A DNA stretch of 61,521 nt from an uncultured Kangiellaceae bacterium (lineage in GTDB: Bacteria > Pseudomonadota > Gammaproteobacteria > Enterobacterales > Kangiellaceae). Both the position numbers and the translations under genes were made by a program. The stretch spans positions 1-61,521 of the forward strand of contig CAJQOL010000125.1 of NCBI GenBank assembly GCA_905479925.1, written 5' to 3'. The notes under the pieces were generated by a model, which searched no databases, was not told where the DNA came from, and was given only the letters and a program-made list of their open reading frames with translations. Of this stretch, positions 14,931-30,217 are shown piece by piece (the first letter of the stretch is position 1; each line of letters opens with the position of its first letter).

Positions 14931-17045
14931 CTATGCTTTTTTTCTTAGTGTTATAAGTGTCACTAAGCCAACTATTAATAACCAATTAAAACTACCGCTG
15001 CCACTACCGCCGGAGGATGGCCGACTTTTCTTAAACATCGGTTGACCACCGGGGTTTGTTGGTTTTTTTACTGGTTGACTAGCCCTTTGTTTTCTCGCCA
15101 ACGCTTCGGTTTCCACCCGACGTTTGTTACTGCGCTTGATGTTGTAAGTTGAGAATTGCTCGTCACTCAACACTAACATTGAGGTGTAATCTGTCACCAA
15201 ACCATATTCCAACGCAATTTCGGTGATTGCTTGTTTATGATCTTCGCCGGCGAAATCATTCATTCGTTCACTAAGGTTGTTAATTTTTGCATAGGCCCAT
15301 AATCTTTCTAGTTCAGGGTTTAGTTGTGAGTTTTCTGCAAAATTTACAACTGTAGAATACGCTTTTTGTTGACCGGAAAGCTTGGCGCTGAGAGTGACCT
15401 TCGCGTTGCCCGAACCCCAGTAATGTCCCATAACGATTAATTGCTGACCTTGGTAAAGACTGCCTATCGTTTTTGGAGTCACATCAGAAACCTTAATGCC
15501 GTCTACCTTAACCTCAACATCATGAAAGGCTTTATGGGAAAGCTTTTCGGTGGCTTGTAAAACACGACCGATAATGTCATCTGAATTAGATATATTTAGG
15601 GCGAAACCTCCTGAGTGTCGTGCAAGTGGTTCGAGTAGTGGCTGGTTAGCGCTATTGCCCATAATGAAGGTAAACAGTCGAACATCGCTCTTCTCCAAAA
15701 GCTTAAAAAAAGCCTCTTTTTTCGTGGTACCCACATTAGCGACACCGTCAGTTACTAAGATAATTCCCGTAGGTCTATCTGAGTCGACTAACTCAAGCCC
15801 TTGCTCAAGTCCGGCGTAAAGGTTAGTGCCATTATTCGGAGTTATGTTACCTAACTGAGCAAGGTAGTACTGTAGATTTTCCGGCGTAATGTCTGTATAT
15901 CCATTAGTTAATTCCCGCGCGCTGTTATTGAATAGAATAATACGGAATCGATCCTGTGGTCGCATTTTTCTTATGGAGCGACTAATGCCTTCAACCAAGC
16001 TTGAGAATTTACCTTCCATAGAGCCTGATATATCCAAAACGAAATTCCAGTCGGTTCCCTGGGTAATTGGTGTTAACTCATCACCGGGGGTAAAAACCAT
16101 CATAAATGTTCCTTTTTTATTTATGTCAGGACGATAACTAGTTAGTTCTAAACCACCAGGTAAACCATCTTGTAGGCGCCAATAAACGACCAGATCTTTG
16201 TCCAGATTGAACACCGCCTCGCCATTGTTATTCGACTGGTTTAGATTTGATTCTTGCTCCACTTCTAATGGATGGGCTTTAGCGTAAGTGGAGGCCATTT
16301 GCTGCGAAACGATATCATCATTAGATTCTTGTTTGACGCTAGTGTTTCCGTATTTTGACATTGAAACTTGCCATTCGTTATCGTTTATTTTAACTATCTT
16401 TGCCTGCGCATGATTAGGTAATCTAAGGGCGCTTATCGGATAGCTTGAGCGAATTTTGAAGTTAAAGGAAAAGGCCTTAGAGACTTTGGTATTGGTATCC
16501 CAAAAAGAAAGGGCCTGTTCATCAACGCCACCTTCTTCCAGTTGGTAGACCCACCTTCCAATCCCAAGGTCTATTTCCGCAGGTTGATAGTAGCGGATTT
16601 GTATTTTTGTATTTTGCCCAGCGCGAACCGGATAAACACTCGTTTCAAACGTCTTGAAACTGTTTTTTTCGGTAATACCTACCTCGTTACCCGCCGCTTT
16701 TTCTTGGTTATAGATTTCTCGCGCTTTTTCCTTTTTAACCACTTCACCAGTTACTTGTTTGCCGTCAATCCAAACGCTAAACTCACCGACGGCACCTTTA
16801 CTGGGAACGGGAAAACTGTAAATTGCCTCTAGATCGGTTGAATGACGATTGCTAAATATTTGAGTGACGCTAGTTATCGCATAGCCGTCTTCTATAAGTA
16901 CATCGACATGATGTTCGGATAATTCTAAAGGATCTAGGCCTCCTGATTTCGGCGTTAACAATCCTGCAGCGTTTGTGCTTAAGCTGAAAACTAGCAGTAT
17001 AAAAACACTCACTAATTTCCCCGCTATGATAAAAATGTTATTCAT
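14931..17045 (-). CDS. VIT and VWA domain surface protein with GlyGly-CTERM tail, 704 aa
   Basis: Exported protein of the inter-alpha-trypsin-inhibitor heavy-chain-like family. A signal peptide ends near residue 27 (STNAAG). A VIT domain follows (about 30-160, with IFSNRHSTDLEAIYSFPVP and the EKAREIYNQEKAAG segment). The von Willebrand A domain holds the MIDAS metal site DISGS at 338-342 and LVTDGVANVG further on. The C-terminus is a Gly/Ser run, a hydrophobic stretch (FNWLLIVGLVTLITL) and RKK, which is the GlyGly-CTERM form used for rhombosortase processing and surface delivery. A sortase-target relative of this family is common in marine proteobacteria. The gene neighbours the CHAT/caspase cluster in the same orientation as its left arm; functional linkage is unproven. 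Confidence 0.9.
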   Translation of the reverse strand: MNNIFIIAGKLVSVFILLVFSLSTNAAGLLTPKSGGLDPLELSEHHVDVLIEDGYAITSVTQIFSNRHSTDLEAIYSFPVPSKGAVGEFSVWIDGKQVTGEVVKKEKAREIYNQEKAAGNEVGITEKNSFKTFETSVYPVRAGQNTKIQIRYYQPAEIDLGIGRWVYQLEEGGVDEQALSFWDTNTKVSKAFSFNFKIRSSYPISALRLPNHAQAKIVKINDNEWQVSMSKYGNTSVKQESNDDIVSQQMASTYAKAHPLEVEQESNLNQSNNNGEAVFNLDKDLVVYWRLQDGLPGGLELTSYRPDINKKGTFMMVFTPGDELTPITQGTDWNFVLDISGSMEGKFSSLVEGISRSIRKMRPQDRFRIILFNNSARELTNGYTDITPENLQYYLAQLGNITPNNGTNLYAGLEQGLELVDSDRPTGIILVTDGVANVGTTKKEAFFKLLEKSDVRLFTFIMGNSANQPLLEPLARHSGGFALNISNSDDIIGRVLQATEKLSHKAFHDVEVKVDGIKVSDVTPKTIGSLYQGQQLIVMGHYWGSGNAKVTLSAKLSGQQKAYSTVVNFAENSQLNPELERLWAYAKINNLSERMNDFAGEDHKQAITEIALEYGLVTDYTSMLVLSDEQFSTYNIKRSNKRRVETEALARKQRASQPVKKPTNPGGQPMFKKSRPSSGGSGSGSFNWLLIVGLVTLITLRKKA

Positions 17046-17392
17046 GGTATTGCTCCTCGTATGAATGGTTCAGGAGCCAGTGTTGCAGAGTGGATTGTTG
17101 TTTGTTAGTAAAATGGCATGAGTATCAGATGATGATACTCCAAGTTAGTTTTTCAAATTGACTTATTCTCATTATCTTGTTGATTGTTAATGAGTAGCTG
17201 TCAGCGACATTGAGAAGATTATGAAGTTACGATAAGGAAGGGGAAAGGTTGAGCCAATATTGTTCAAAAAGATTTGAAGCCTCGCTGCCCGTGCACCGGT
17301 AATTAACTGCTGCTCAAGGAGGCATATCCGCTAAAGATTTGACTTTAACGGATACTAGAGCAAATAGATGATGAAAATCAATAAATGGCTGC
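17046..17392. other. Gap between the VIT/VWA and CHAT genes
   Basis: About 347 bp. It contains the VIT/VWA promoter region and, near the CHAT stop, an imperfect hairpin TATCCG-C-TAAAG / CTTTA-A-CGGATA (17325-17354) that may end the CHAT transcript, although no T-run follows on the minus strand. No gene is seen. Confidence 0.4.
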
Positions 17393-19585
17393 TTAGTTAA
17401 TTTCCTGGACTAAGGTCCAGCCATTTCGTTTTGACTCGATCACTTTTACAGATTCATTTGCCCGCAATACGCCTATCTTAGTGCCACTATTGGCATCTGC
17501 ATCTCGCATATTTTTACCTTGGGAATTGTTCTGGTAGGTTTCACCGTTAACGACTGTGTCAAGATAGACCCAACCACCACGAGCAGACAAAATCAATGTA
17601 ACCGGCTCGCTAGCGACAGCAGGTGAGCCGACGTTTGGCACAGTTTTGAAAACTTTGTTTTCGTTTCCATCAAGATTGAGTTGATATTGACTGGTAGCTG
17701 TTAGACCTACCGCTGTCAGTTTTACTTTGGCGTCTTCAAGGCTCAATGAGATGAGTTCTGGAACAGGAATTCCAGAGGTGCTCATATACAAGGTAAGCTC
17801 AGTATCATGAGGAATAATACCGTTAACATTCGGTTCGCTTCTTAAAAAGGTGCCTTCATCTTTATCCCCTATCTCGCTCTTGACCGTCGCAATAGACACG
17901 GGCATATCTTCCAACAGCGCTCTTATTTCTTGTTCATTTTTTCCCTCGAGAAGATTGTCTAGCTCGATAGTTCCGTTAGAAACAACTAACTTAATGGGTT
18001 TATCGGTATCGTAACTAGTTCCCTCTGGAGGGTCGGTTCTAAGAACAGTACCTTTTATCTCGGCGCTAGCTATACCGAATGTATCTGGCGCTACCATTAA
18101 GCCTTCCGCTTCAATAATGTCGCTTGCTTGCTTTATATTGTATCCCTTATCAGCAATCGCAGGGATCACCGCCTCAGACATCATGGAAATATACACAAAC
18201 ACCGCTAATGCTACCGCCGCTACTGTGGCTACAAGTCCTTTGACGGCACTTGATACTCCGGCTTTGGTGCTGATAGGCTGCGGCGACTCCTTAATAATTG
18301 CTTCTGCGTCATCAATGATATTCGATGGTCGGTTGATATTGGGTATGGTTGGGGTTTCGCTTGGGGTTGGTTCTTCTATATTAAATAACACGCCATTAGG
18401 TGAGCGCATAAACAGTACCGGAGTTGCCCATTCCATTGTAGAAGAATCTGCAAGCTTGATTGCCTTGCGGCCTTCTGCAACGGCTGCGTCAACCGGGTAG
18501 CCGGCAACAATGCGAGGATAAAAAGTACCAGCAAAACTCACCGCGGCCTTATCGGTAATGGGAAATTGCATGGCGACAACCGCCGGAATACCTGCCATGA
18601 CCATTGCTGTAGCGACTCCAGCAAAAGGATCTTGACCGGCTTGTTTGGTGGCTTTACCGGTATCACAGGCATTTAGAAACACCATTCGCAATGACTTAAC
18701 GTCTTGCAGAATAACGCCCCCTAGGGTCTGTCCGTCGAGCGCTAGCGGCTGATTATTTTCGTCTTCTAACAGTAATACTCCTTGACCGGTAGAGCGATCG
18801 AAGTCACCGTGCCCCATGTAATGCAATACGTGGTATTCTTTTTCACTTAACTTGTCGCTCAATCGTTTGGTGGTTGCCGGGCTTTCTAAAAAATCGACCT
18901 CAACCCCATTATTACGTGCCCATGACTGTTCAATAAGTTGTCGTTCCTGTTCTAGATTTAACGGCGCTACACCTTCGGGACTAGACATAACAACTAGAAT
19001 TCTAAATGGCAGTTCAAAAGACAGCGGGGCGAATGGGCGCTGCACATTGAGATAACGAACAAGTGGTGTACTACGTGATAAATTTAAATAGTCGCGTGTT
19101 TCTTCTCGATACAATAACTCCCATGGCAAACTGGCTAGTGCCGCTACATCAGAATCTGTTGGGTCAATTTGTAACTTGATTCGAAGACCGCTATCGACGC
19201 CACGAATCATGCCGATACTTTGATCAAACAAGGTTCTAGTTGCACCAACAAAAAGGTTCTCAAAAAGAGTTTTTGGGAGCTCTATTGAGGGAGCTGATGT
19301 AGGGCTTTCCATCTCCATTTCGCGAGTAGTTTCTTCATCAGCTTTGGTAGATGATGCGCTTCGAAATGTCCCCGCTAGATTTTGTAACATGTCAGCGGCA
19401 TCATCGAGCTCAAAAGGGAGGCGTAATTTAGAACTACCTTCCCCCGCAGGGGAGCGAATATTAATGATGTAGTCATCACCTTGTTTGGACTCGATTTCTA
19501 TGATGAAATCTTTATAGAGTATATTTTTCTTTGACTCTAAATTCTGCTGATTCATACTAGAAGAGTTGGATTCTGAATTATTCAT
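17393..19585 (-). CDS. CHAT protease - transmembrane - three PASTA - SH3-like protein, 730 aa
   Basis: Predicted caspase-like cysteine protease (clan CD, CHAT family) built as a membrane receptor. Residues about 100-430 form the CHAT domain, with the catalytic His in YMGHGDFD (H259) and the catalytic Cys in FLNACDTGKA (C307). One membrane helix follows near 455-480. Outside it lie three PASTA-type repeats (marked by RTDPPEGTSY, RSEPNVNGI and KTVPNVGSPA, each ending in a beta strand with S-G), and the last 60 residues resemble a bacterial SH3 domain. The ATG at 19585 has AGAGGG upstream; an in-frame TTG at 19600 is less likely. PASTA and SH3b modules usually bind cell-wall muropeptides, so an envelope signal may control the cytoplasmic protease. 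It follows the FlgO/TPR gene in the same direction after a 456-bp gap. Confidence 0.88.
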   Translation of the reverse strand: MNNSESNSSSMNQQNLESKKNILYKDFIIEIESKQGDDYIINIRSPAGEGSSKLRLPFELDDAADMLQNLAGTFRSASSTKADEETTREMEMESPTSAPSIELPKTLFENLFVGATRTLFDQSIGMIRGVDSGLRIKLQIDPTDSDVAALASLPWELLYREETRDYLNLSRSTPLVRYLNVQRPFAPLSFELPFRILVVMSSPEGVAPLNLEQERQLIEQSWARNNGVEVDFLESPATTKRLSDKLSEKEYHVLHYMGHGDFDRSTGQGVLLLEDENNQPLALDGQTLGGVILQDVKSLRMVFLNACDTGKATKQAGQDPFAGVATAMVMAGIPAVVAMQFPITDKAAVSFAGTFYPRIVAGYPVDAAVAEGRKAIKLADSSTMEWATPVLFMRSPNGVLFNIEEPTPSETPTIPNINRPSNIIDDAEAIIKESPQPISTKAGVSSAVKGLVATVAAVALAVFVYISMMSEAVIPAIADKGYNIKQASDIIEAEGLMVAPDTFGIASAEIKGTVLRTDPPEGTSYDTDKPIKLVVSNGTIELDNLLEGKNEQEIRALLEDMPVSIATVKSEIGDKDEGTFLRSEPNVNGIIPHDTELTLYMSTSGIPVPELISLSLEDAKVKLTAVGLTATSQYQLNLDGNENKVFKTVPNVGSPAVASEPVTLILSARGGWVYLDTVVNGETYQNNSQGKNMRDADANSGTKIGVLRANESVKVIESKRNGWTLVQEIN

Positions 19586-20041
19586 TGATTGCCCTCTCAA
19601 AAAACCTTGAAAACCTCAAGGGTTAAATACGTCCATGACCGGCACAATTGACGCCGAGCTTGTCGATATTTCATGTTTGTTATGACAAAACTTTCTTCGA
19701 GAAAAAACAATTCTGCAACCAACTAACTACAGGACAAAACTGTCACTGTGTTGAGAATATTTCGATACAACCAAGTTTACTTCAGTCAGACTTCGCTATT
19801 TTTACTGTTATGGCTATTTTTACTGTTATGGTTATTTTTCTGATGTAGCTATTAAAAAAACACTGCGCAACTTCAACTTATAAAGTCGAACTATCGGCTT
19901 ATTATTCACTATTAATTTTTCTATTAAATTTTTAACCAAATTTTATCAAAAAAAAACTTTTCTTGTAGACTAGAGTGTAGAGGTTAGGCACTGTGGTCCT
20001 CAAAAATACTGCCATCTAGACTCAGGCTTAAACACTCATTG
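19586..20041. other. Gap between CHAT and FlgO/TPR genes
   Basis: About 456 bp, AT-rich. It includes an 18-bp imperfect tandem (TTTTTACTGTTATGG-type, about 19799-19840). A 66-codon plus-strand frame overlaps this repeat but has no ribosome site and was not accepted. Confidence 0.4.
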
Positions 20042-22078
20042 TTAGGAGTTATCCGCGGGTAATAACGCAATAAATCGTGGTTCATCTTTTAAGCGTTTTA
20101 AGTCGGGGTCTAAAGCAATAAATTGTCGATAGTACTGCTCAAGTGCAACCGCTTCTTCTAACAATTCAATCGCTTGTTCCGAGTCATCTTTTTTGAGTAC
20201 CGCTAGCGCTTTAAAATAAAGAATTTCGGAGTTGCGTTGTGATTGCTCTATTGCTTTTTCAAGCAAATCCATCCCTTCTGACTGCTTATCCAAGTGAACC
20301 AAGTACAAACCTAACATCGCTCTGGTATACCAATCTTCATTATTAATAGTTAGGTTATCTCGGGATAATTCAGCCGCGCGTTTATAAGCAAATTGTGACA
20401 AAGATTCTTGACCCGAAATAAATCGATAACTCTCCGCTAATCGACCCCAAATTCGATGATCAGTTTCCGCGTATTCTAATGCTTTTAATTGCATGTCCGC
20501 TGCTTCTTGGAATTGGCCTGCATAATAATAGAACATTCCCAAATTGGTGTAGGCCTGCCGAGACGGACTCAATTCTAACGAACGCTCATAGGCTAACAAG
20601 GCTTGTTTTGTATCACCCAACATCCAATAGGCGGCACCTTTTCCTAGGTATCCAATGGTTGAATCCGGTGTAAGGCGGGAAACGACTTCATAGGTATTCG
20701 CCGAATCGGCATATTGTGCTCTGTCGTAATAGAAATCAGCCAAACTTTCATAGGCTTTCCAATAATTGGGTTTTAGTTCTATTGCGCGTATAAAAGTTTC
20801 TTCCGCTTTAACAAACTCTTTGTTACCTGCTTGCACTTCTCCAAGTTCAACATAGGCATTAACTTCGCTCGGAGATGCAGCGATTGCTTCACGCAATATA
20901 TCTTTAGATTTTTGGTATAAGCCGCGAAGACGATACAAGCGGCCTAGAGCCACATTAACTTCACTGTTACTGTCGGTGTTTAAGCTTTGTGCTTTTTCAC
21001 AAGCTATTTCAGCATAAGTAAAATCATCGACGCCGTTAGAGTTTTCATACAAGGCCAAATTCGCTTCACATATTCCCGCATAGGCGCGTGAAAACGCAGG
21101 GTCAATGGTCAAGGATTGATTGAAAAGTTCTTTAGCGGCTTTAAGCGATTCACTACCCTTTGAGCTACGTAACTTCTCTAAACCTTGCAAATACACAATA
21201 TAGGCTTCAATATTTTCAGATTGTGTTTGTTGTAATCGGTTTTGTGAACTAACCGACAGGGCAATTTTTGTTTGATTAACCACCGCTAACGCTATTTCGC
21301 GCTGAATCGCAAAAACATCATCTAGTTTACGGTCATAAGATTTACTCCACGCGTTAAATCCTTTTTCACCGTTGATTAATTGGGCGCTAATTCGAACACG
21401 ATCACCTTCTCGTCTTACGCTGCCTTCGAGGATGTAGCCAACATTTAACAGTTTTGCTACTTCACGTACATCAACCCGTTCACCACGGAATCTAAATGAG
21501 GAGGAGCGGGCTGCAACATTGAGTTCGCGAATACTCGATAAATGATTCAATATTTCTTCAGCGAGTCCGTCGGCAAAATAATCGGAGTTCTCTTTACCGT
21601 CAAAGTTTTCAAAGGCTAGTACAGCAATAGAGTTAGCAGGAAAACCGACCACAGTAACGTCTGGTTCAGATTGAGACGTTAAAGTCTCATCTTCAACCGC
21701 TTGAATTCTATTATCTAAGAAAACGACCAATGCCCAGGTGCCAGCTATGACCATTAAACCAAGACACAAGGCTATTGGTCGACTGGCTTTTTTCTGTTTC
21801 CGTGTGGCATTGCCTTTTACGTTCCATAGCGGGAGGTCAAACATCACTCCTTGAGATTTTATGTCAAATATCCACGTCAAGAAAACCACCGCAGGGAAGC
21901 CTGCAATAGTTATTATGATCAGTAAACGAACCACGCCAGCAGGCAGCCCTAATGGCTCAGAGGTTAATTCTACAACCTGTAAAATTAGCCAACCGGTGAC
22001 CGCATAGGTTACTACCACAGGTATTACTTCTCTGCGGCGTATCTCAGAAATCAGTTGGCTTATGAAGCGCGATAAAAT
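20042..22078 (-). CDS. Membrane-anchored FlgO-domain/TPR protein, 678 aa, probable ATT start
   Basis: Signal-linked scaffold protein. Two membrane helices at the N-terminus (around VVTYAVTGWLILQ and RLLIIITIAGFPAVVFL) and a third near residue 105-125 precede a FlgO-like domain (IAVLAFENF, SDYFADGLAEEIL, YILEGSVRREGDRVRISAQL) and then about nine TPR repeats to the C-terminus. This architecture is common beside adenylate-cyclase/CadC-type and kinase modules but here lacks a DNA-binding or cyclase domain. An in-frame GTG at 22018 would cut into the first helix and has no ribosome site. Twenty codons upstream an ATT at 22078 lies eight bases from a perfect AAGGAG, and the added residues (LSRFISQLISEIRRREVIP) match the basic amphipathic lead-in normal for this family. 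Confidence 0.85.
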   Translation of the reverse strand: MLSRFISQLISEIRRREVIPVVVTYAVTGWLILQVVELTSEPLGLPAGVVRLLIIITIAGFPAVVFLTWIFDIKSQGVMFDLPLWNVKGNATRKQKKASRPIALCLGLMVIAGTWALVVFLDNRIQAVEDETLTSQSEPDVTVVGFPANSIAVLAFENFDGKENSDYFADGLAEEILNHLSSIRELNVAARSSSFRFRGERVDVREVAKLLNVGYILEGSVRREGDRVRISAQLINGEKGFNAWSKSYDRKLDDVFAIQREIALAVVNQTKIALSVSSQNRLQQTQSENIEAYIVYLQGLEKLRSSKGSESLKAAKELFNQSLTIDPAFSRAYAGICEANLALYENSNGVDDFTYAEIACEKAQSLNTDSNSEVNVALGRLYRLRGLYQKSKDILREAIAASPSEVNAYVELGEVQAGNKEFVKAEETFIRAIELKPNYWKAYESLADFYYDRAQYADSANTYEVVSRLTPDSTIGYLGKGAAYWMLGDTKQALLAYERSLELSPSRQAYTNLGMFYYYAGQFQEAADMQLKALEYAETDHRIWGRLAESYRFISGQESLSQFAYKRAAELSRDNLTINNEDWYTRAMLGLYLVHLDKQSEGMDLLEKAIEQSQRNSEILYFKALAVLKKDDSEQAIELLEEAVALEQYYRQFIALDPDLKRLKDEPRFIALLPADNS

Positions 22079-22086
22079 GAGAGTAA

Positions 22087-22092
22087 CTCCTT
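22087..22092 (-). promoter_or_regulatory. Shine-Dalgarno site that fixes the ATT start
   Basis: AAGGAG on the minus strand, with eight bases to the ATT at 22078. No ATG, GTG or TTG in frame lies at a suitable distance, so this site is the argument for non-standard initiation. Confidence 0.6.
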
Positions 22093-22201
22093 GTTATTAT
22101 TAAAAGATAGGACCTACTATGTATCGAACCTATAATATAGCGTTTTCTTTGGTGTGAGTATATACTCGATTGTTCCATTTAATCACAAAGTGAGATTGGT
22201 A

Positions 22202-22426
22202 ATGTTAAATTCGCAAAACAACAACTATAACGCGTCATCAAATATTAACCTGATAATGGCACCATCTGAGAGTCCAGACCAGGCAGATCCTCGCCCAACG
22301 ATCCCTGATACACGTCCAGGCAGACCTGATACACGTCCGGGAAGACCCGATACTCGTCCTGGAAGGCCCGATACCCGTCCAGGTAGACCGGATACCCGTC
22401 CAGGTAGACCCGATACTCGAGAATAG
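22202..22426 (+). CDS. Small Pro/Arg repeat protein, 74 aa
   Basis: Unrecognised small protein. A polar Asn-rich head (MLNSQNNNYNASSNINLIM) is followed by APSESPDQADPRPTIP and five exact copies of Asp-Thr-Arg-Pro-Gly-Arg-Pro, ending DTRE. It is strongly basic and Pro-rich and has no signal peptide. The start is uncertain: ATG 22202 is chosen, but GTG 22154 (90 aa) is also open and neither has a strong ribosome site. A good terminator at 22504-22527 makes a real transcript plausible. It lies between the divergent FlgO/TPR gene and the caspase-STAND gene. Metacaspase-like proteases cleave after basic residues, so it might be a substrate or ligand, but each Arg here is followed by Pro, which usually blocks cleavage. 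An adaptor role through polyproline-type structure is equally possible. Confidence 0.6.
   Translation: MLNSQNNNYNASSNINLIMAPSESPDQADPRPTIPDTRPGRPDTRPGRPDTRPGRPDTRPGRPDTRPGRPDTRE
22307..22420 (+). repeat. 21-bp tandem repeat coding for a seven-residue unit
   Basis: Five complete 21-bp units (22307-22411) plus a partial one. Third-codon positions differ between units (ACA/ACT/ACC, CCT/CCC/CCG), yet every unit keeps the same amino acids, which points to selection on the protein. Confidence 0.9.
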
Positions 22427-22503
22427 GGGCGAAAAAAACCGTATTTAAATGACACATGCGTTGAAGTAGCATGCGCAGTTTTGTCCATGTCGATTTCAAG
22501 TGC

Positions 22504-22527
22504 GGCATGGACTTCCATGCCTTTTTT
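22504..22527 (+). terminator. Terminator after the repeat-protein gene, with a competing fold
   Basis: GGCATGG (22504-22510), ACTT loop, CCATGCC (22515-22521), then six T. An alternative stem, GTCCATG (22483-22489) with CATGGAC (22506-22512), would use the same bases as the terminator's left arm, so the two folds exclude each other. That is the form of an attenuator. The caspase-STAND gene begins 85 bp after it. Confidence 0.8.
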
Positions 22528-22612
22528 ATAAAGCAAGCCTGTAGTTAATTATCATAATTTTCTAAATGGATTTATTTTGCTAAATGGATTTGAATGTTAA
22601 AAGGGTAGCTAA

Positions 22613-25600
22613 ATGATCTCTGAGGCCATCGAGAGCCGCTTCGGTCGAAGCATTGCGATCATTATCGGTATCGATAATTACGAGAACGGAATTCCGTCGC
22701 TTAAAACCGCCGCTAATGACGCTCGCCGTTTGGCCACGACACTCAATGAACTTCATAATTTTGAAATAAACCTCTTTCTCAACGAAGATGCTTCCAAAGA
22801 GCGCCTCAGCCAATTACTTAATGAGCAACTGGGCAATGAGCTTGGCGCCGATGACCGTTTGATATTCTATTTTGCTGGACATGGCGTTGCTTTAGACGGT
22901 GATGATGGACCAAATGGTTATTTGCTTCCTCAGGATGCACGTCGTGGCGAAGAAGACACTTATTTATTTATGCCGTTTGTGCATGACGCTCTTCTTTCTT
23001 TGCCGGTTCGCCATGCGCTGATTATTATGGACAGTTGCTTTTCGGGGGCATTTCGATGGGCTGCAACGCGGGATCTGATTGCTATGCCCGAGGTCGTGCA
23101 CGAGGAGCGTTATGACCGTTTTGTGAAAGATCCTGCGTGGCAAGTCATTACATCAGCTGCACACGATCAGAAAGCCATGGACCAGCTTTCGAGCGGCAGT
23201 CTTGGGACTCGACCAAACGAGCAAGGGCATTCGCCGTTTGCTCTAGCACTTTTTGAAGCATTAGAAGGTAAAGCGGATGTTGTACCAGCGGATGGTGGGG
23301 ATGGATTAATCACGGCCACCGAGCTGTATCTCTATCTTGAAAGTCGTCTACAACCAGAATCCATTGAACAAGGCTTGCGCCAAACACCGGGTTTTTGGCC
23401 GCTGGCCCGACATGATAAAGGCGAGTTTGTTTTTGCCGCTCCGGGTGCAAGTTTAAGGCTACCACCTGCACCGCCACTTAATTACGCTAATAATCCTTAT
23501 CGAGGTTTAGAGTCTTTCGAAAAGCAGCATGCTGAACTGTTTTTTGGTCGCGATGAAGTTATTAATGACCTTGAAAAGTGTATCGATAATCAAAACTTAA
23601 CCGTTATTCTTGGCGCATCAGGAACAGGAAAATCAAGTTTGGTAAAAGCGGGACTTTTGCCTAGGCTAGAACTGCGGCATGGCTTATTAGTTTTACCTAC
23701 TGTCCGACCAGGTGTAAATCCGATCTTGTCATTAAGCCGGGCGCTTGATACGGCGGCGAATGTTGTCGCCATTGAGACAAGAGTTTCTGAGCTTTGTGAA
23801 TTGAATCCAAGAACTATCTTGTTCATAGATCAGTTTGAAGAGTTGATTACCATGAATAATTCTGCAGACGAACGCGAGACCACGCTGCAATTATTATCAC
23901 GTTTGTTGCAACGGTATTCGGACAAACTCGATATTGTCGTTACGCTACGGACCGATTTCGAACCGCAATTTAGTCGCGGCGAGCTCAATAAATTTTGGAA
24001 GTCCGGACGCTATATTATTCCACCGATGAGTCAAAATGATCTACGTGAATGCATTATGAAACCGGCGACTGCTAGAGTTATGTATTTTAAACCAAACGAA
24101 CTGGTTGAGGAGCTGATTAACGAAGTAGTCGCGACCCCAGGGGCTTTGCCACTGTTATCGTTCGCTCTGAGTGAGATGTATATCCATTATCTAGAGCGCG
24201 CGAGTAATGACCGCGCCATTGAACGGATTGATTATGAGGCGGTTGGTGGTGTAGTCGGAGCCTTGCGAAGTCGTGCCAATGCTGAGTACGAAGCGTTGGA
24301 GGATGAAGAACAGCGCCAAATAATGCGTCTTATTATGCTGCGCATGGTCGCTGCTGGTAGCGGTAGTGTCGCCCGTCGCAGAGTCCTTCAGTCTGAGCTC
24401 GATTTTGAGTCTGCGGAACGAAATGCCATGGTTAAGTCCATCATTAACCGCTTGGTAAACGCACGGCTAGTGGTAACTGGCAACGAACGTTCTGATGATG
24501 GTTTAGGTGCCGGTGATGATTACGTTGAACCCGCTCATGATGCATTAGTAAGGGCGTGGGGGCGTCTATTGAGATGGGTGCATAAAGAAAACGAACGTGA
24601 TCCAGATGATCTTCGTTTTCAACGTAAGCTGACAACGGATGCCAAGTTATGGAACGAAACTGAGGTAAAATCTGAGAAAAAAGGGCTGCTGTGGAACGAT
24701 GCGGCGAGAAGTGCATCACTAAAGAGCCTTCTTAAAAGTAACGTGGATTGGCTCAGTCGAGTTGAACTGTTGTTCGCCAATAATAGTGTGTTGGCGAGGC
24801 GACGTATTAGACAGTTTTGGACTTCCGCGATGCTGATTGTTGTCGCGCTGGCGGTTTTGGCTATTTGGCAGGCTCAGGTTGCAACTCAGCAAAGCAAGCG
24901 AGCAATTACTCGCGGAATTGCGACTGAAATTAGAGCAAGTCTAGCGGAAGGAAATTTGTATCGTGCTTTACAAGTCGCGCGGCGAAGCGTTGTAGAATTC
25001 AAATTTCCTGAGGAGACGGCCATTGCTATGAGAGCAATAGCGACTTATGAATCACCGTTACTCACTAGTTTCACAATGCCCTCAAATGCACACGCATTAC
25101 TTAGCTTAGATGACCGCTGGATCATTGCTTATAATAAGCCCGATCAGCGCAGTATGAACATGCCTTTCAATGTCTCGACGATGGATTGGAGCGGAAATCA
25201 AACGGCAATCAGCGATGACGCAACCACCGTTACTCTTTCCCCCTTAGGAACATGGCTGATGGTGACTGGATACAATAGCGGCGATTCTTCAAATGCACTG
25301 GGTAGCGACATTGATTGTGAGTTAAATGGTTTTACGGATATTTTTGAAATCTCCGAATTGGGCATTCTCAAAGCACCGCATTTGCCTGCTATTCCAACCA
25401 GTTTTTTGTTGTCTCCCAAAATCGGCGATCAAGACTCGGCTGTGGCGATTGCTTGTGAAACCGCCATTATTTCGATTAACGTTTCCGACCTTTTATCGAA
25501 TGCTTCTGGCAACTCTGTTGCGAGTCCCCCTGATAAATTCGATACAGGTATTAAGGTAAAAAGTGTCTTTTTTGATAATAATGGCCAGCTTGTTGTGGTG

Positions 25601-27034
25601 CATGATAATTCAACCAGCGTTTATACCCGTGCAGGTAATCTACTGTTCAGAATTGAAGGCGAGGCCGCCGCGGCTTCTGCAGATGGACGGCTAGTAACCG
25701 CTGTTAACTCGCGCGGAGAATCTAATTTGCGGACGGAAGAGTCTAAAATTTTACTCTATGATTCTAATGGTCAGCTTACAGCAAGGTTCGATGGCAGAAG
25801 ACCTGTGTTATCTCTTGATGGTCAACGCTTGGCTTTTGAAAACGTTGGAGCAGAAAAGGGTAGCACCGTTGTTAATCTAGAGTCTGAGGTGACAAAAGAC
25901 GAGATTTATACCTTGAGTGATGGTCGCAAAGAGAGTCTTCGAATATTTGAGACGAGATATACACTCCAAGGGGTGAGACCTCGTTTTTCTGCCGATGGAA
26001 GACTTGTGATGACGTTACATGGTGGAAGGCATGAAAGCGGACGTGACGGCTCAAGTGCAGAAAAAACGTCGGTGACCAACGCCGCATCCGGAAGTCTTCT
26101 TTTTGAAGTTGCCGGTGAGGGAGTCGCATTCGCGCGAAACAGGCCTGTTCTGATGACAATCAGCGGTGCAGAAATTTCTCTTTGGGACATGCGCCGCTTC
26201 CCGACGAAGGCGCCTTTACTATGGGATGAAAAGTGGCCGAGTATCGATAAAGAAGCATTCGTTGCGTTGAGCTCCGGTGGCGGGAAAGAATGTGACGAGT
26301 GGGTCGAATCTTGTTTTTCGCCGGACGAAAAAACTCGGGTTACAAGGAAAGAATACTACCCGAAGAATTCTTCTGCTGCTTCTGGATACGAATATGTTGT
26401 TACCCCGGATATCGCATCGCCGCTGCCAAAGGTGGTGAATTTTTCGCCTAAATTGGTAGAAGACTTTATTTGTGGGTGGACAACGGGTGTCCAGTTTTCA
26501 CGCTCCAGGCCGTGGGTCCTATTGGGGTGTGAAAATGGCATTCAGTTGGCCCATTTAAACGGCGAAATTCTTCAATCATGGAATTCCTGTAGTGGACAGG
26601 CAATCGCGGCTTGCAGTCGAGTAGACCATGCGTATTTTAGTGAAGATGGTAAAACTATTTTTGAAATTCGAGCGGATCGTCGAGTGTGGGTGCACACGCC
26701 GGGCGAATCAAAAGAGCAATCGCTCTTGCTGGGCCCTCACGAGGCATTTGTTAGCGCTGTTGACAAGCATGATTCAGGAACGATTGCTATTGCTACCGGC
26801 AACGGAACGATTCAAGTCTACGATGTTAAAGGAGAATTAATACAAACGATGCATATCGATGTGAAGTCATCTCCAATTAAGCAAGTAAAATTCTCGAAAG
26901 ATGGTCAGGTATTGTTTGCCCGAGATCATCAGCAAATGATTCATCGTTGGAGCATCTCAACAGAGTATCAGCTGGAATTGTACAATTGGCTTGATGCATT
27001 ATCCGATAAAGAGTGGAATCAATTGACAGAATAA
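22613..27034 (+). CDS. Caspase (C14) - STAND ATPase - transmembrane - WD40-like protein, 1473 aa
   Basis: Large NLR/apoptosome-like protein. Residues 1-260 are a caspase-fold protease with catalytic His in YFAGHG (H90) and Cys in DSCFSGA (C142). A linker NPYRGLESFEKQHAELFFGR (about 309-328) opens a STAND ATPase of the nSTAND1 type: Walker A GASGTGKSS (334-342), Walker B-like LFIDQFEEL (D406), then winged-helix and helical parts to about 725. A membrane helix (about 734-755) follows, then the conserved RGIATEIRASLAEGNLYRALQVARRS segment and about 650 residues of degenerate WD40/beta-propeller repeats. The ATG has AAGGG seven bases upstream. In the family model, ligand binding by the propeller releases ATP-dependent oligomerisation and activates the protease. 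It is the core of the candidate locus. Confidence 0.93.
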   Translation: MISEAIESRFGRSIAIIIGIDNYENGIPSLKTAANDARRLATTLNELHNFEINLFLNEDASKERLSQLLNEQLGNELGADDRLIFYFAGHGVALDGDDGPNGYLLPQDARRGEEDTYLFMPFVHDALLSLPVRHALIIMDSCFSGAFRWAATRDLIAMPEVVHEERYDRFVKDPAWQVITSAAHDQKAMDQLSSGSLGTRPNEQGHSPFALALFEALEGKADVVPADGGDGLITATELYLYLESRLQPESIEQGLRQTPGFWPLARHDKGEFVFAAPGASLRLPPAPPLNYANNPYRGLESFEKQHAELFFGRDEVINDLEKCIDNQNLTVILGASGTGKSSLVKAGLLPRLELRHGLLVLPTVRPGVNPILSLSRALDTAANVVAIETRVSELCELNPRTILFIDQFEELITMNNSADERETTLQLLSRLLQRYSDKLDIVVTLRTDFEPQFSRGELNKFWKSGRYIIPPMSQNDLRECIMKPATARVMYFKPNELVEELINEVVATPGALPLLSFALSEMYIHYLERASNDRAIERIDYEAVGGVVGALRSRANAEYEALEDEEQRQIMRLIMLRMVAAGSGSVARRRVLQSELDFESAERNAMVKSIINRLVNARLVVTGNERSDDGLGAGDDYVEPAHDALVRAWGRLLRWVHKENERDPDDLRFQRKLTTDAKLWNETEVKSEKKGLLWNDAARSASLKSLLKSNVDWLSRVELLFANNSVLARRRIRQFWTSAMLIVVALAVLAIWQAQVATQQSKRAITRGIATEIRASLAEGNLYRALQVARRSVVEFKFPEETAIAMRAIATYESPLLTSFTMPSNAHALLSLDDRWIIAYNKPDQRSMNMPFNVSTMDWSGNQTAISDDATTVTLSPLGTWLMVTGYNSGDSSNALGSDIDCELNGFTDIFEISELGILKAPHLPAIPTSFLLSPKIGDQDSAVAIACETAIISINVSDLLSNASGNSVASPPDKFDTGIKVKSVFFDNNGQLVVVHDNSTSVYTRAGNLLFRIEGEAAAASADGRLVTAVNSRGESNLRTEESKILLYDSNGQLTARFDGRRPVLSLDGQRLAFENVGAEKGSTVVNLESEVTKDEIYTLSDGRKESLRIFETRYTLQGVRPRFSADGRLVMTLHGGRHESGRDGSSAEKTSVTNAASGSLLFEVAGEGVAFARNRPVLMTISGAEISLWDMRRFPTKAPLLWDEKWPSIDKEAFVALSSGGGKECDEWVESCFSPDEKTRVTRKEYYPKNSSAASGYEYVVTPDIASPLPKVVNFSPKLVEDFICGWTTGVQFSRSRPWVLLGCENGIQLAHLNGEILQSWNSCSGQAIAACSRVDHAYFSEDGKTIFEIRADRRVWVHTPGESKEQSLLLGPHEAFVSAVDKHDSGTIAIATGNGTIQVYDVKGELIQTMHIDVKSSPIKQVKFSKDGQVLFARDHQQMIHRWSISTEYQLELYNWLDALSDKEWNQLTE

Positions 27035-27158
27035 TTGGTGGGTACAGGGTCGAAAATAATCAGTTGCTAGTTACGTTAAATAACGTTAGAAAGATTTGAG
27101 CAAGCTGTATTGCGTTAGCCTGAATTGCATAAATAAGTGATGTGTATTAATCTGATTT
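27035..27158. other. Spacer after the caspase-STAND gene
   Basis: No gene or terminator recognised. Together with 27425-27687, which is A-rich and also empty, it flanks the MITE-like element; the downstream metacaspase promoter could lie in 27425-27687. Confidence 0.35.
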
Positions 27159-27424
27159 TATACCCATCCCACCTCAAGATGCATATTTCAGAGCTTCACC
27201 AGAAAGCTTGAACGAGGCGCAGCTTGTAGGGAATGGCTAGCCCTTGGCAAAAGCTATAACGCTGTGCAAGTTTTCTGGTGAAGCTCCCGTAGGGCGCGGC
27301 AATAAGCTATCATCTTCTTCGTTACTGCAACTTGAATTAGAGTGACTAATACGGCATTGCAGCGCCTTAAATATGACAGCTTATTGCCACGCTGAAGTAT
27401 CCATCTTGAGGTGGGATGGGTATA
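27159..27424. mobile_element. MITE-like element, 266 bp, no coding capacity
   Basis: The ends form a perfect 23-bp terminal inverted repeat: 27159-27181 (starts TATACCCATCCCACC) and 27402-27424 (ends GGTGGGATGGGTATA), extended imperfectly by about ten more bases. Two further internal stems exist: 27193-27210 with 27267-27284 (17 of 18 paired) and 27298-27313 with 27373-27388 (15 of 16). The ends lie in TATA context, so a TA-type target duplication is possible. No transposase gene is present, so it would have moved in trans. It separates the caspase-STAND and metacaspase genes. Confidence 0.8.
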
Positions 27425-27687
27425 TATGGATTTGGAAGCGCCGAAGCGTATTATCTATTTTATCGGTAAACTGTAAGGTAAATCGATAATCTAGAACCGA
27501 GTTAAGAAAAGTCGCTATTGAATATTACTTAGGTCCTGCAGCTAAAAATAAGATAAAAAAAGAATAAGAAAAGAAATAAAAACGAACCAAAAACAAGCAA
27601 TTATTCAACGCACATTATTTAACGCAGTATGTTTTCTAATTTTGCCAATTTAACGCCCGTTTGTTCGGGAAGAAACGGAGATCAACT

Positions 27688-29688
27688 ATGTCTGAACACA
27701 CGCCAAAGAAACATGCCTTGCTTATCGGAATTGATGAATACAGTAACTTTGAAGAACAATACCAACTGAGAGGTTGTGTCAATGATGCAAAGTTAATGAA
27801 AAGTGTATTGGTCGACCATTTTAATTTTTCTGAATCTAATATTACGGAACTTCACAATGCCGCTGCAAGCCAGCAAGGTATTCTGGATGCCATGGAAAAT
27901 TTGGTTAATAAAATAGACCAAAATGATATAGTCGTCTTTCATTTTAGCGGACATGGTTCGCAGCGAAAATCAGCTGATACCGATGAGGGGACGGGGATGA
28001 ATAGTACTATCTCTACCGCTGATAGTGGCTACATGGACCCCTATCCAAATTTGGATATTATCGACAATGTGATTAATGACTGGCTAACTCGCTTGACCAA
28101 GAAAACACCCTACATTTCGTTAACTTTTGACTGTTGTCATTCAGGAACCATTACTCGAGACGCTCTCGGTGCAAAAGCAAGAGGTCTTCCTGAGGATACT
28201 CGCTCTCTAAGTGCGATGGGCGTCGGGAAACAATTGCCACCTGTAACTCGCTCCACAAGTAGCGCGGCAGGTAACACAAATAAGTCTAGTGCTTGGCTCG
28301 CGCTTAACAATAATTATGTTGTCATGTCAGGATGCAGAGACGATGAATATTCCTACGAGTTCGAAACCGAAGGGGGCGGAGAGCCAATTAGGAACGGCGC
28401 TTTAACTCACTTTTTGACTAACGCATTATTAAAGGCTAAACCGGGCTCGACCTATCGAGATATATTTGAACTGGCCAGAAATGGGGTTAACTCAAAATTT
28501 AATTTACAGCATCCACAAATTGAAGGAGCTCAGGACAGGGAAATTTTTGGGGTTAAAGATATCGAACCGTTACGTTTTATTTCTGTGGCTTCAGTAGCAG
28601 GTAAAACGGTAACTTTGGCGGGTGGCGCCGCGCACGGACTTTGCGTTGATTCACTTTGGACAGTTTATCCTCCTGGAACCAAACAAGCCGAAGGCACAGA
28701 ACCGCTTGCAACCATTGAAATAACCCAGGTTGACGCACTTAGCGCTTTAGGTGTTATCAAGGATAATAATGGTGAAGTAACCACTGGTGCGAGATGTATA
28801 GAGTCAGCGACATCCGCGGTCGCATTATTGCTTGCCGTGGATATCAGCCAGCTTGAAGGTTTAGCCGCTAAGGAGTTGTTGTCAAAGATCGAAGAGTCTC
28901 GCTTGCTTACGCTAGCAAAAACAACAAAAACCGCGGACGTATGTGCCTATATCATTAACTCAGAAGAAGATTTACCTGAGGGTTTAAGCTTGCCATCAGA
29001 CGCCAGTATCAGTGAGCCAACTTGGATATTTGTTGATCGTACAAGATGCTTAACCATGCCTTTACATGCGATAAGCGAGGAAAGCGTCATCGAGTTAGTG
29101 GTCGACAACCTTGAAGCAATGGCGCGCTATAGAAATGCGTTAAAACTAGATAATTCTGGTAGCAAGCTTAATGTTGAGTTTAATATTTTTCACGTAGACG
29201 AAGCGGGTGAACTACATAATATTAATGATGAAGACTTTGTCTTTGAGGAAGGTCAAAACTTGGCGTTTGAAATAACTAATCACGAGCCACATAATGTTTT
29301 CTTTTCGTTATTGGATTTTGGTTTGACTGGAAAAATTTCGCTGTTTTATCCGCGAAAAACTAGTAGTGAAATGATAGCTCCCGGGATTACTATAAAAATT
29401 GGTGCGGACGAGCGAAAAATTAAACTCAGTGTCCTTGACGAATTTTTCGGCAATAAAGGTACCGAAACCGTTAAAGCAATTATCACCAGTGAAGAGTCGG
29501 ATTTTCGTTGGTTACAGCAAGAAGGAACACGTTCAGTTGGTATGAAACGATCTTCGTTGCGACAGCAATTTGAAGCCGCCTATAATGGTCCACCTACAAG
29601 AAATATGTCGTTTGAAACTGAAGAGGATGAGGATGAAAATGAAGATTGGAAAGCGATCACTCGCTCTTTTCAATTGAAGCGTAAGTGA
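27688..29688 (+). CDS. Type I metacaspase-like protease with C-terminal DUF4384-like region, 666 aa
   Basis: Caspase-fold cysteine protease of the metacaspase group, expected to cleave after Arg or Lys. The p20 part holds LLIGIDEY, the catalytic His in FSGHGSQ (H89) and the catalytic Cys in FDCCHSGT (C149-C150, the second being the usual nucleophile). NNNYVVMSGCRDDEYSYE and the TYRDIFELARNGV segment complete the protease fold to about residue 290. The rest is predicted beta-rich with a stretch LAFEITNHEPHNVFFSLLDF like the DUF4384 modules often found behind prokaryotic caspases. The end is acidic (about FETEEDEDENEDW). The ATG at 27688 has GGAG eight bases upstream; an in-frame TTG at 27661 is less likely. 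The small membrane protein follows after 67 bp. Confidence 0.92.
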   Translation: MSEHTPKKHALLIGIDEYSNFEEQYQLRGCVNDAKLMKSVLVDHFNFSESNITELHNAAASQQGILDAMENLVNKIDQNDIVVFHFSGHGSQRKSADTDEGTGMNSTISTADSGYMDPYPNLDIIDNVINDWLTRLTKKTPYISLTFDCCHSGTITRDALGAKARGLPEDTRSLSAMGVGKQLPPVTRSTSSAAGNTNKSSAWLALNNNYVVMSGCRDDEYSYEFETEGGGEPIRNGALTHFLTNALLKAKPGSTYRDIFELARNGVNSKFNLQHPQIEGAQDREIFGVKDIEPLRFISVASVAGKTVTLAGGAAHGLCVDSLWTVYPPGTKQAEGTEPLATIEITQVDALSALGVIKDNNGEVTTGARCIESATSAVALLLAVDISQLEGLAAKELLSKIEESRLLTLAKTTKTADVCAYIINSEEDLPEGLSLPSDASISEPTWIFVDRTRCLTMPLHAISEESVIELVVDNLEAMARYRNALKLDNSGSKLNVEFNIFHVDEAGELHNINDEDFVFEEGQNLAFEITNHEPHNVFFSLLDFGLTGKISLFYPRKTSSEMIAPGITIKIGADERKIKLSVLDEFFGNKGTETVKAIITSEESDFRWLQQEGTRSVGMKRSSLRQQFEAAYNGPPTRNMSFETEEDEDENEDWKAITRSFQLKRK

Positions 29689-29755
29689 GTTAGCTAGCTA
29701 AGTTTGCTAATCACGTTGGCTAACTATTTAGAAATTTTAAAATGGAGAATAAAAA

Positions 29756-30217
29756 ATGGGACGTTCAATAATAACAACTGCGCCTAAGGCGACGGTTTCC
29801 GCTCGATCGGCACCGGGAAGAGAGCCTCAAGAAGAGCCTGCCGTAGATGGTTATTCCGAAGCACTATTAAAACTCATTCCGGCGGAAGTGATTGGCGTTT
29901 ATTTGGCGATGCAATCAATCTTGGTAAACTCAGAACCAAAACCTGGCTGGGAGGCTATTTTGGTTGTTTTTATGTTTGGTATGTTTGCTACGTATTTTTA
30001 TCTAAGGGTTAGTCTTAAAGTAACCAATAACCTTCAATTAGCACTATCGGTCGGTGCATTTTGTGTATGGGCTTATTCGATGCTGCCTCAAGATTTTAAC
30101 TCTATGTTACCTCCAGGTTACAGCATATATAATGGTACTTATGCGGGATTGTTGTTGATTGCGTACACGTTTATTGCACCGAAAATACCATTAGATATTA
30201 AAAAGAAGTCTTCATAA
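29756..30217 (+). CDS. Small membrane protein downstream of the metacaspase, 153 aa
   Basis: Function unknown. A 35-residue soluble head rich in Ala, Arg and Pro precedes LLKLIPAEVIGVYLAM and then three to four membrane helices (about 42-58, 66-85, 92-110, 130-147), ending in KKKSS. The 'LIPAEVI' opening with compact helices is a pattern I associate with small membrane partners of effector or conflict systems, but I cannot name a family. The RBS GGAG lies eight bases before the ATG. Its 67-bp distance from the metacaspase gene suggests one transcript, so it may be a membrane target, anchor or inhibitor of the protease. Confidence 0.8.
   Translation: MGRSIITTAPKATVSARSAPGREPQEEPAVDGYSEALLKLIPAEVIGVYLAMQSILVNSEPKPGWEAILVVFMFGMFATYFYLRVSLKVTNNLQLALSVGAFCVWAYSMLPQDFNSMLPPGYSIYNGTYAGLLLIAYTFIAPKIPLDIKKKSS

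What the first reader, a model, noticed from the sequence alone, without database searches (positions are those of the whole stretch)
14931..30217. Cluster of three caspase-clan proteases with membrane and repeat partners
A CHAT protease (17393-19585), a C14 caspase-STAND protein (22613-27034) and a metacaspase (27688-29688) lie within 12.3 kb with a FlgO/TPR membrane scaffold, a Pro/Arg repeat protein, a small membrane protein and, at the left end, a VIT/VWA GlyGly-CTERM protein. Seen directly: all catalytic His/Cys pairs are intact (H259/C307, H90/C142, H89/C150) and so is the STAND Walker A. Known: caspase-STAND-propeller proteins act as ligand-triggered switches, and CHAT and metacaspase proteins are frequent executioners in bacterial conflict. 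Inference: a layered protease cascade with an envelope-sensing receptor (PASTA/SH3) and a cytoplasmic switch, for cell death, anti-phage defence or envelope-stress response. I know of no described system with this combination.
Basis: partly seen in the sequence, partly recalled or inferred. Interest (0 to 1): 0.86.

Follow-up and report, generated by a model that had tools for sequence, protein, structure and literature searches.

The report
Caspase cluster with repeat-peptide partner
Three caspase-type protease genes in a marine bacterium belong to a gene set that recurs whole in one close relative and in pieces in more distant ones, together with a small membrane protein and a tiny repeat peptide that likely act as the proteases' target and decoy, so bacteria may hold caspases in check with a built-in decoy.

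Summary
The cluster is real: three caspase-fold proteases with intact catalytic pairs (CHAT-TM-PASTA, C14-nSTAND1-TM-WD40, C14-DUF4384), a membrane TPR protein (P3), a repeat micro-protein (P7) and a 4-TM protein (P6). All six genes recur together in one congener (60-79% identity) with other flanks. P3, P5, P6 and P7 recur in all five further gammaproteobacterial genomes found through P6, sometimes dispersed; C14-STAND and CHAT genes in four and three of these. The VIT/VWA gene is not part of the set.

Two new findings carry the mechanism. (1) P7, the 'Pro/Arg repeat', is protein-coding: its units differ at codon positions 1/2/3 by 19/22/179 pairwise changes. (2) P6 has one Arg motif (R-[GAST]-[GAVS]-[PL]) in a variable tail (104 of 111; 6.6 in shuffles). 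After this Arg, P6 has G/A/S in 105 of 111 and never Pro or Val; P7 has only Pro or Val.

I infer that metacaspase P5 cleaves P6's tail and that P7 is a cleavage-resistant decoy. Distant P6 homologues in cyanobacteria lie beside trypsin-like proteases. Cleavage, inhibition and defence are untested. New variant of protease-based bacterial conflict systems.

The parts
17393..19585 (-). P2: CHAT protease, one TM helix (456-474 counted from the TTG at 19600), PASTA repeats, weak SH3-like end
   Evidence: CHAT 104 bits, PASTA 53 bits; TM; orthologues in G001, G464, G468; CHAT relative in G466
20042..22078 (-). P3: membrane TPR protein; ORF from GTG ends at 22018, probable start at ATT 22078-22076
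   Evidence: three TM segments; orthologues; start
22202..22426 (+). P7: repeat micro-protein, units DTRPGRP, divergent from P3
22613..27034 (+). P4: C14 caspase - nSTAND1 - TM - WD40-like protein
27601..27646 (+). conserved leader block upstream of P5, near-identical in G000, G001 and G003, weaker in G464
   Evidence: alignment A5; coordinates counted from the sequence printed
27688..29688 (+). P5: metacaspase-like C14 protease with DUF4384-like C-terminal part
29756..30217 (+). P6: 4-TM protein with disordered-looking N-terminal tail
29804..29815 (+). Arg motif R17-S-A-P20 of the P6 tail, predicted cleavage or docking site

Best explanation
The locus encodes a conserved membrane-linked multi-protease system whose metacaspase-type protease (P5) is predicted to cut the N-terminal tail of a 4-TM protein (P6) after a conserved arginine, while the repeat micro-protein P7 would act as a cleavage-resistant decoy that holds the protease in check. 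Shown: gene content, recurrence, intact catalytic residues, protein-level constraint on P7, the single Arg motif in P6 tails, and the different residues that follow Arg in P6 and P7. Inferred: the C14-STAND-WD40 protein, the CHAT-PASTA protein and the TPR protein P3 each cross the inner membrane and act as sensors; on a trigger they free or activate P5; P5 cleaves P6 after R17; the freed 4-TM protein disturbs the membrane and stops growth or kills the cell, most likely as defence.
For: Clustering: six genes kept in G001 with different flanks. P3 orthologues (E <= 1e-80) in 2 of 99 relatives (window genome counted), exactly the two with the full cluster, and in 5 of 5 further gammaproteobacterial P6 genomes G464-G468, not in the incomplete G471/G003. 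P5 beside P6 in 8 of 8 gammaproteobacterial loci, in one of them (L054) with a CHAT gene between. 38 of 81 listed P6 rows on contigs >= 2500 b share their contig length with a listed P5 row; of 98 control CHAT rows 0 share one with P6 and 1 with P5. P5/P6 distances over these 38 correlate, r = 0.76, permuted maximum 0.31. P7: pairwise codon-position changes 19/22/179 over seven genomes, window 0/0/34. P6 tail motif in 104 of 111 tails against 6.6 +/- 2.6 shuffled. Residue after Arg: P6 G56 A31 S18 E3 T1 N1 D1 of 111; P7 P25 V6 of 31 units. P5 aligns to solved metacaspases over the NDA and D-x-C-H-S-G motifs; D42 and D157 invariant in 31 P5 rows. P6 tail cytoplasmic by charge counts. Distant P6 homologues beside trypsin-like proteases, two of these loci with EAD1 domains.
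Against: No cleavage, binding or phenotype data. The P6 regex was chosen after seeing the alignment, and the Arg was picked by R-x-x-[PLMR]. P7 and P6 motifs differ in spacing (R-x-G-x-P against R-x-x-P), so recognition by one pocket is not shown. P7 is tied to P3 more tightly than to P5: in Paraglaciecola and Glaciecola P7 and P3 lie away from P5, so P3 may be its partner. Three of seven P7s hold R-V units that may be cleavable. P7 was not found in five cyanobacterial P6 loci, nor on the short G003 contig. The four cyanobacterial tails read in full lack the R-[GAS]-x-P motif. Membrane side of the P4 and P2 sensor parts is not settled by charge (4 against 3, 2 against 1). No structure prediction. 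No phage or viral-contig relative of P6. The distance correlation does not remove shared species history.
Confidence: 0.38

Rival explanations
1. The Arg motifs are docking sites, not cleavage sites: P7 is a multivalent scaffold and the P6 tail a single anchor that bring a protease or P3 to the membrane, with no cut at R17.
For: P7 keeps company with P3 in 6 of 6 contiguous loci and repeats a short motif, as scaffolds do; motif spacing differs from P6.
Against: The residue after Arg differs cleanly between P6 (G/A/S in 105 of 111) and P7 (P/V in 31 of 31), which pure docking does not predict.
Confidence: 0.25
2. The set is an envelope-stress or regulatory proteolysis module, not a death or defence system; P6 is a regulated membrane protein and not a killer.
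For: PASTA, TPR and WD40-like parts next to TM helices; no phage link.
Against: Patchy presence, likely transfer into Paraglaciecola, and P6 relatives inside EAD1/VMAP-type operons of cyanobacteria.
Confidence: 0.2
3. P7 is a multi-core propeptide that the metacaspase cuts into short signal peptides sensed by the neighbouring receptors.
For: Tandem Arg-bearing units beside an Arg-type protease gene.
Against: 25 of 31 unit Args are followed by Pro, which Arg-specific proteases do not cut (recalled); the P7 sequence shows no signal peptide by eye.
Confidence: 0.08
4. Chance grouping of common genes.
For: Pieces are dispersed in Aliiglaciecola, Glaciecola and Paraglaciecola; C14, CHAT and TPR genes are common in general.
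Against: Six genes kept in G001; orthologue co-occurrence; P7 specific to P3-orthologue loci.
Confidence: 0.02

Closest known systems
canu (caspase-nuclease) antiphage system, PMC12799240 (passages seen)
   Same: A caspase-family protease gene beside a partner held inactive by disordered insertions; TPR parts in some loci.
   Different: Partner there is an MBL-fold nuclease; here a 4-TM protein with a conserved Arg in its tail, plus CHAT and C14-STAND proteins and a repeat peptide.
EACC1-caspase two-gene membrane systems, PMC7159879 (passages seen)
   Same: Small TM protein gene paired with a caspase gene; STAND fusions occur.
   Different: EACC1 has one conserved TM helix; P6 has four hydrophobic segments, and the NCBIfam EACC1-caspase model scores 70 and 42 against a cut-off of 140.
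EAD1/VMAP ternary conflict systems, PMC7159879 (passages seen)
   Same: Distant P6 homologues lie inside such operons in Okeania and on a Fischerella plasmid.
   Different: No EAD1, VMAP or MoxR domain found in the window's cluster genes.
Bacterial gasdermin-protease pairs (listing and abstract start of PMC9079055; rest recalled)
   Same: Protease beside a membrane-active target.
   Different: P6 is a short 4-TM protein without a Pfam match; gasdermins are larger soluble precursors (recalled).
Craspase TPR-CHAT (listing)
   Same: A CHAT protease in a multi-gene conflict setting.
   Different: No CRISPR gene among the 20 window proteins scanned; the CHAT protein carries TM and PASTA.

Membership tests
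EACC1-caspase system | constant caspase of EACC1-associated type | tested here: not met
   NF047832: 70.4 (P4) and 42.1 (P5) bits against a cut-off of 140
EACC1-caspase system | small partner with one TM helix | tested here: not met
   P6 family has four hydrophobic segments
canu | MBL-fold nuclease partner | tested here: not met
   none among the 20 window proteins scanned, 5987-43626
canu | caspase with Ig-like C-terminal fold | not testable with these tools
   structure prediction switched off; P5 has a sub-threshold DUF4384 match
EAD1/VMAP ternary system | MoxR, vWA and VMAP genes | tested here: not met
   not in P2-P6; the neighbouring VWA gene P1 is a VIT/VWA protein that does not travel with the set
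bacterial gasdermin | gasdermin fold of the target | tested here: inconclusive
   no Pfam or NCBIfam match for P6; no fold model
metacaspase / C14 protease (P5) | His-Cys dyad and basic-residue (Arg/Lys) pocket motifs | tested here: met
   H98/C159, D42 and D157 invariant in 31 rows; aligned to solved metacaspases; role of the Asp residues recalled
anti-phage defence system | protection against phage | not testable with these tools
   PADLOC models match single domains only: SAVED_CHAT 79.5, PD-T4-6 51.8, caspase 37.9 and 90.1 bits

The most novel reading that the evidence does not exclude
P7 is a genome-encoded multivalent caspase pseudosubstrate: a tandem array of cleavage-resistant Arg-Pro/Arg-Val motifs that titrates a bacterial Arg-specific caspase away from the single cleavable Arg site of a 4-TM membrane effector. 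That would be a bacterial caspase inhibitor built from short linear motifs, and the 4-TM family would be a non-gasdermin, protease-gated membrane effector shared by caspase systems of gammaproteobacteria and trypsin/STAND systems of cyanobacteria.
Probability: 0.27. Interest if true: 0.88.

Novelty: new variant of a known kind. Interest (0 to 1): 0.72.

Why it matters
Bacterial caspases are known to activate nucleases and gasdermins, but how they are kept silent is poorly known (recalled). This locus offers a compact, testable answer: a target (4-TM tail) and a putative decoy (repeat peptide) that differ at the residue after the Arg. It also adds an unnamed 4-TM family, without a Pfam or NCBIfam match at a curated cut-off, that keeps company with proteases in two phyla.

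Tried and rejected
Chance grouping: rejected by G001 and by co-occurrence elsewhere. VIT/VWA as part: rejected, no homologue beside the G001 cluster. EACC1 system: rejected, model far below cut-off. Structure prediction of P6 and P5: switched off, so no fold search was made. P6 in phages and viral contigs: none; in plasmids one weak hit, a Fischerella plasmid. P6 in a class-wide sample: 1 of 369, the window genome itself. P5 in the order of Aliiglaciecola: 1 of 393 at 1e-60, Aliiglaciecola itself; in the order of G465: 5 of 397 at 1e-40, of which only G465 itself has a full-strength match (889 bits; the other four genomes 305 or less). So an out-of-sample test of P7 on new P5 genomes was not possible; those four genomes, a weaker second site in G465 and G094 served as controls instead. 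Shared DNA motif between upstream regions: one 11-mer only, between the stretches upstream of P4 and P2. Chance hits in the repeat scan, looked at and not counted as P7: L126 (RARPR), L120 (RPGQR), L060 (CGRWP), and antisense frames of the true repeats. In the looser scan many frames, mostly GC-rich (in L053, L067, L069, L074, L089, L096, L100, and a few in L058, L059, L060), were flagged and set aside.
Full report
Observation. The window is contig C125 of an unnamed assembly (4.49 Mb, 224 contigs). Its nearest held relative with the whole cluster, G001, is the record titled Kangiella sp. NORP56. The genes are: P1 VIT/VWA 14931-17045 (-); P2 CHAT-TM-PASTA 17393-19585 (-); P3 TPR membrane protein 20042-22018 or, more likely, to 22078 (-); P7 repeat micro-protein 22202-22426 (+); P4 C14-nSTAND1-TM-WD40 22613-27034 (+); P5 C14-DUF4384 27688-29688 (+); P6 small membrane protein 29756-30217 (+). 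The catalytic His/Cys pairs and the Walker A are intact.

It is a set. In 99 relatives (the window genome counted), orthologues of P2, P4, P5 and P6 by high bit score, and of P3 at E <= 1e-80, are found only in same-genus genomes: P2, P3 and P4 in 2 of 99 (G000, G001), P5 and P6 in 3 of 99 (G000, G001, G003). Weaker relatives of P2, P4 and P5 occur in other genomes of those searches. In G001 all lie in one run in the same order, although the CHAT gene is turned round; identities are P2 71%, P3 76%, P4 79% over its first 874 residues and 60% over the end, P5 75%, P6 66%. Of the flanking G001 frames none matches a window frame at 1e-5 except a beta-lactamase-fold gene at 26%. G003 is a 75% complete MAG whose contig begins about 700 bases before P5.

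It recurs elsewhere. A scan of GTDB contigs with a P6 alignment gave 11 loci, so these genomes were chosen for holding P6. Contexts: Lysobacter sp. CAU 1642 (G465; the P6 protein list calls it Pseudomarimonas): P3 - P7 - P5 - P6 and, after a LytTR gene and a 509-aa frame, a C14-nSTAND1 protein. MAG G466: P7 - P5 - CHAT - P6, with P3 on another contig. Aliiglaciecola (G467) and Glaciecola (G468): P5 - P6 - short C14-STAND operons, with P3 - P7 elsewhere (in G467 beside a second P5) and a long C14-STAND elsewhere. Paraglaciecola (G464): P5 - P6 at one site, P7 - P3 - CHAT-PASTA with a P4 remnant at another; its P3 is interrupted. Over the seven genomes G000, G001 and G464-G468: P3, P5, P6 and P7 in 7 of 7; a C14-STAND relative of P4 in 6 of 7 (none at 1e-15 in G466); CHAT with more than 340 bits to P2 in 5 of 7 (not G465, G467; in G466 without a PASTA match). 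The set is modular and partly dispersed, but it co-occurs. P3 orthologues score 636-1440 bits; apart from a second piece of the interrupted G464 gene (232 bits) the best other match in those genomes is 199 bits. The Paraglaciecola copies are nearer to the Kangiella-like ones (P5 77-79%, P3 74-79%, P6 74-76%) than to those of Aliiglaciecola and Glaciecola (P5 41-43%, P3 58-61%, P6 39-41%), which I recall as members of its own family Alteromonadaceae. That suggests horizontal transfer between families. NCBI puts Paraglaciecola and Kangiella in different orders; the genome search seems to place them in one order, judging by the like genome sizes. G465 was searched in an order of its own.

P7 is a gene. 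In each of the seven genomes a short frame holds tandem units: DTRPGRP (window, G464), DTR[PV]GKP (G001), DNR[PV]G[KR]P (G467, G468), ATRPGPPDEN (G465), DERPGPP (G466). Between units of the same genome, pairwise changes at codon positions 1/2/3 sum to 19/22/179, and to 0/0/34 in the window: the peptide, not the DNA, is conserved. P7 lies head to head with P3 in 6 of 6 contiguous loci. In G466 it is cut by contig ends: one end beside P5 (L054) shows the repeats, the end beside P3 (L106) shows what reads as the P7 start (MTMMLPPGPPD). The scan found no P7 in 9 other regions with parts of the system (L106 among them, since one unit is below the scan's threshold), in 13 regions with P3 paralogues, in 6 regions with other C14 genes or in 5 cyanobacterial P6 loci; three chance hits there are told under Tried and rejected. 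G003 could not be judged.

P6 and its tail. P6 has no Pfam or NCBIfam match, nor do distant members at any curated cut-off. It has four hydrophobic segments, with Lys/Arg in loop 2 and the C-terminus, so the N-terminal tail should be cytoplasmic. The protein search found 144 relatives (120 listed), for P5 620 (120 listed). Of the 120 P6 rows, 111 have a readable tail; 104 of 111 carry R-[GAST]-[GAVS]-[PL], a pattern set after seeing the alignment, where shuffled tails give 6.6 +/- 2.6. In a 37-row alignment R17 is 95% and P20 92% identical, while no other position from 8 to 30 exceeds 54%. The residue after this Arg (picked by R-x-x-[PLMR]) is G, A or S in 105 of 111, and never P or V; in P7 it is P (25) or V (6) in 31 units. 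Arg-specific proteases do not cut before Pro and cut poorly before Val (recalled). P5 matches metacaspases among solved structures (7qp0, 4f6o, 4afr); orthocaspases are described as cutting after basic residues (PMC6426788, abstract start in the listing; PMC8283722, passages). That the Asp of NDA and D-x-C line the S1 pocket is recalled.

P6 with other proteases. In Okeania (L057) P6 lies between an EAD1-trypsin and an EAD1-STAND-trypsin gene; on a Fischerella plasmid (L112) between EAD1-trypsin and EAD1-VMAP-C, followed by AAA and FGE-sulfatase genes; in Nodosilinea (L060) and strain CCT1 (L059) just before a trypsin-NB-ARC-TPR gene; in Leptolyngbya (L058) before a gene cut by the contig end whose trypsin score is 27.0 against a cut-off of 27.6. 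So 5 of 5 cyanobacterial loci have a trypsin-like neighbour, one of them marginal. Two of them resemble the EAD/VMAP conflict systems of PMC7159879 (passages). The four tails read there in full (L057-L060) lack the R-[GAS]-x-P motif, so the cleavage site, if any, differs.

Mechanism. I commit to a protease-gated membrane effector with a decoy: P5 cuts P6 after R17, and P7 occupies P5 until a sensor fires. P2, P4 and P3 have TM segments between or before their sensory parts; the charge balance places the P3 TPR part outside (6 against 1) but does not settle P4 (4 against 3) or P2 (2 against 1). The nearest tested precedent is the canu system, in which a caspase activates a pro-nuclease by way of disordered gating insertions (PMC12799240, passages); here the gated partner would be a membrane protein. 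Which protease acts first, what is sensed, and whether phages are the trigger are not known. Patchy presence (P6 1 of 369 in the class; P5 1 of 393 and 5 of 397, the latter with one full-strength match) and likely transfer fit defence but do not prove it.

Novelty. Searches of the held papers for DUF4384 with caspase (three papers), CHAT domain with PASTA domain and caspase (none), bacterial caspase with membrane protein and anti-phage (none), FlgO/CHAT/caspase sets, conflict-system terms and pseudosubstrate/tandem repeat/caspase showed no title or listed abstract start on this combination; of full texts I saw only the passages named above (also PMC8195603). I file it as a new variant of protease-based bacterial conflict systems.

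Noticed in passing
window 27159-27424: Inverted-repeat element (33-nt arms, 94% complementary, with nested hairpins) between P4 and P5; looks MITE-like. The gap between the two genes is only about 190 bases in G001.
   Followed up: partly
window 22076-22078 (-): P3 probably starts at an in-frame ATT codon 7-8 bases after an AGGAG/GGGAG site; the same is seen in G001 and G464.
   Followed up: partly
L082 4707-9233 (G464, Paraglaciecola): The P3 gene is interrupted by another open frame and P4 survives only as a C-terminal remnant: the system seems to be decaying at this site.
   Followed up: no
L028 82-216 (-) (G003): A short caspase-like N-terminal fragment (27.6 bits to P4, 67-aa frame) lies just upstream of P5 on the other strand.
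   Followed up: no
L029 (G094:C32): A contig of another family with at least four caspase-like matches in about 23 kb, without P6 or P7 in the 20 kb read.
   Followed up: no
L027 7257-8303 and L028 3239-4285: The same 348-aa gene (reads as an HTH-membrane protein, by eye) follows P6 in G001 and G003 but not in the window.
   Followed up: no
window 14931-17045 (-): VIT/VWA protein with a glycine-serine-rich, hydrophobic C-terminus; TIGR03788 marine sortase target scores 212 against a cut-off of 552.
   Followed up: no
L112 7872-14690 (Fischerella plasmid): A complete-looking EAD1-trypsin / P6-like / EAD1-VMAP-C / AAA / FGE-sulfatase operon, all annotated as hypothetical proteins, near a reverse-transcriptase gene.
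   Followed up: partly
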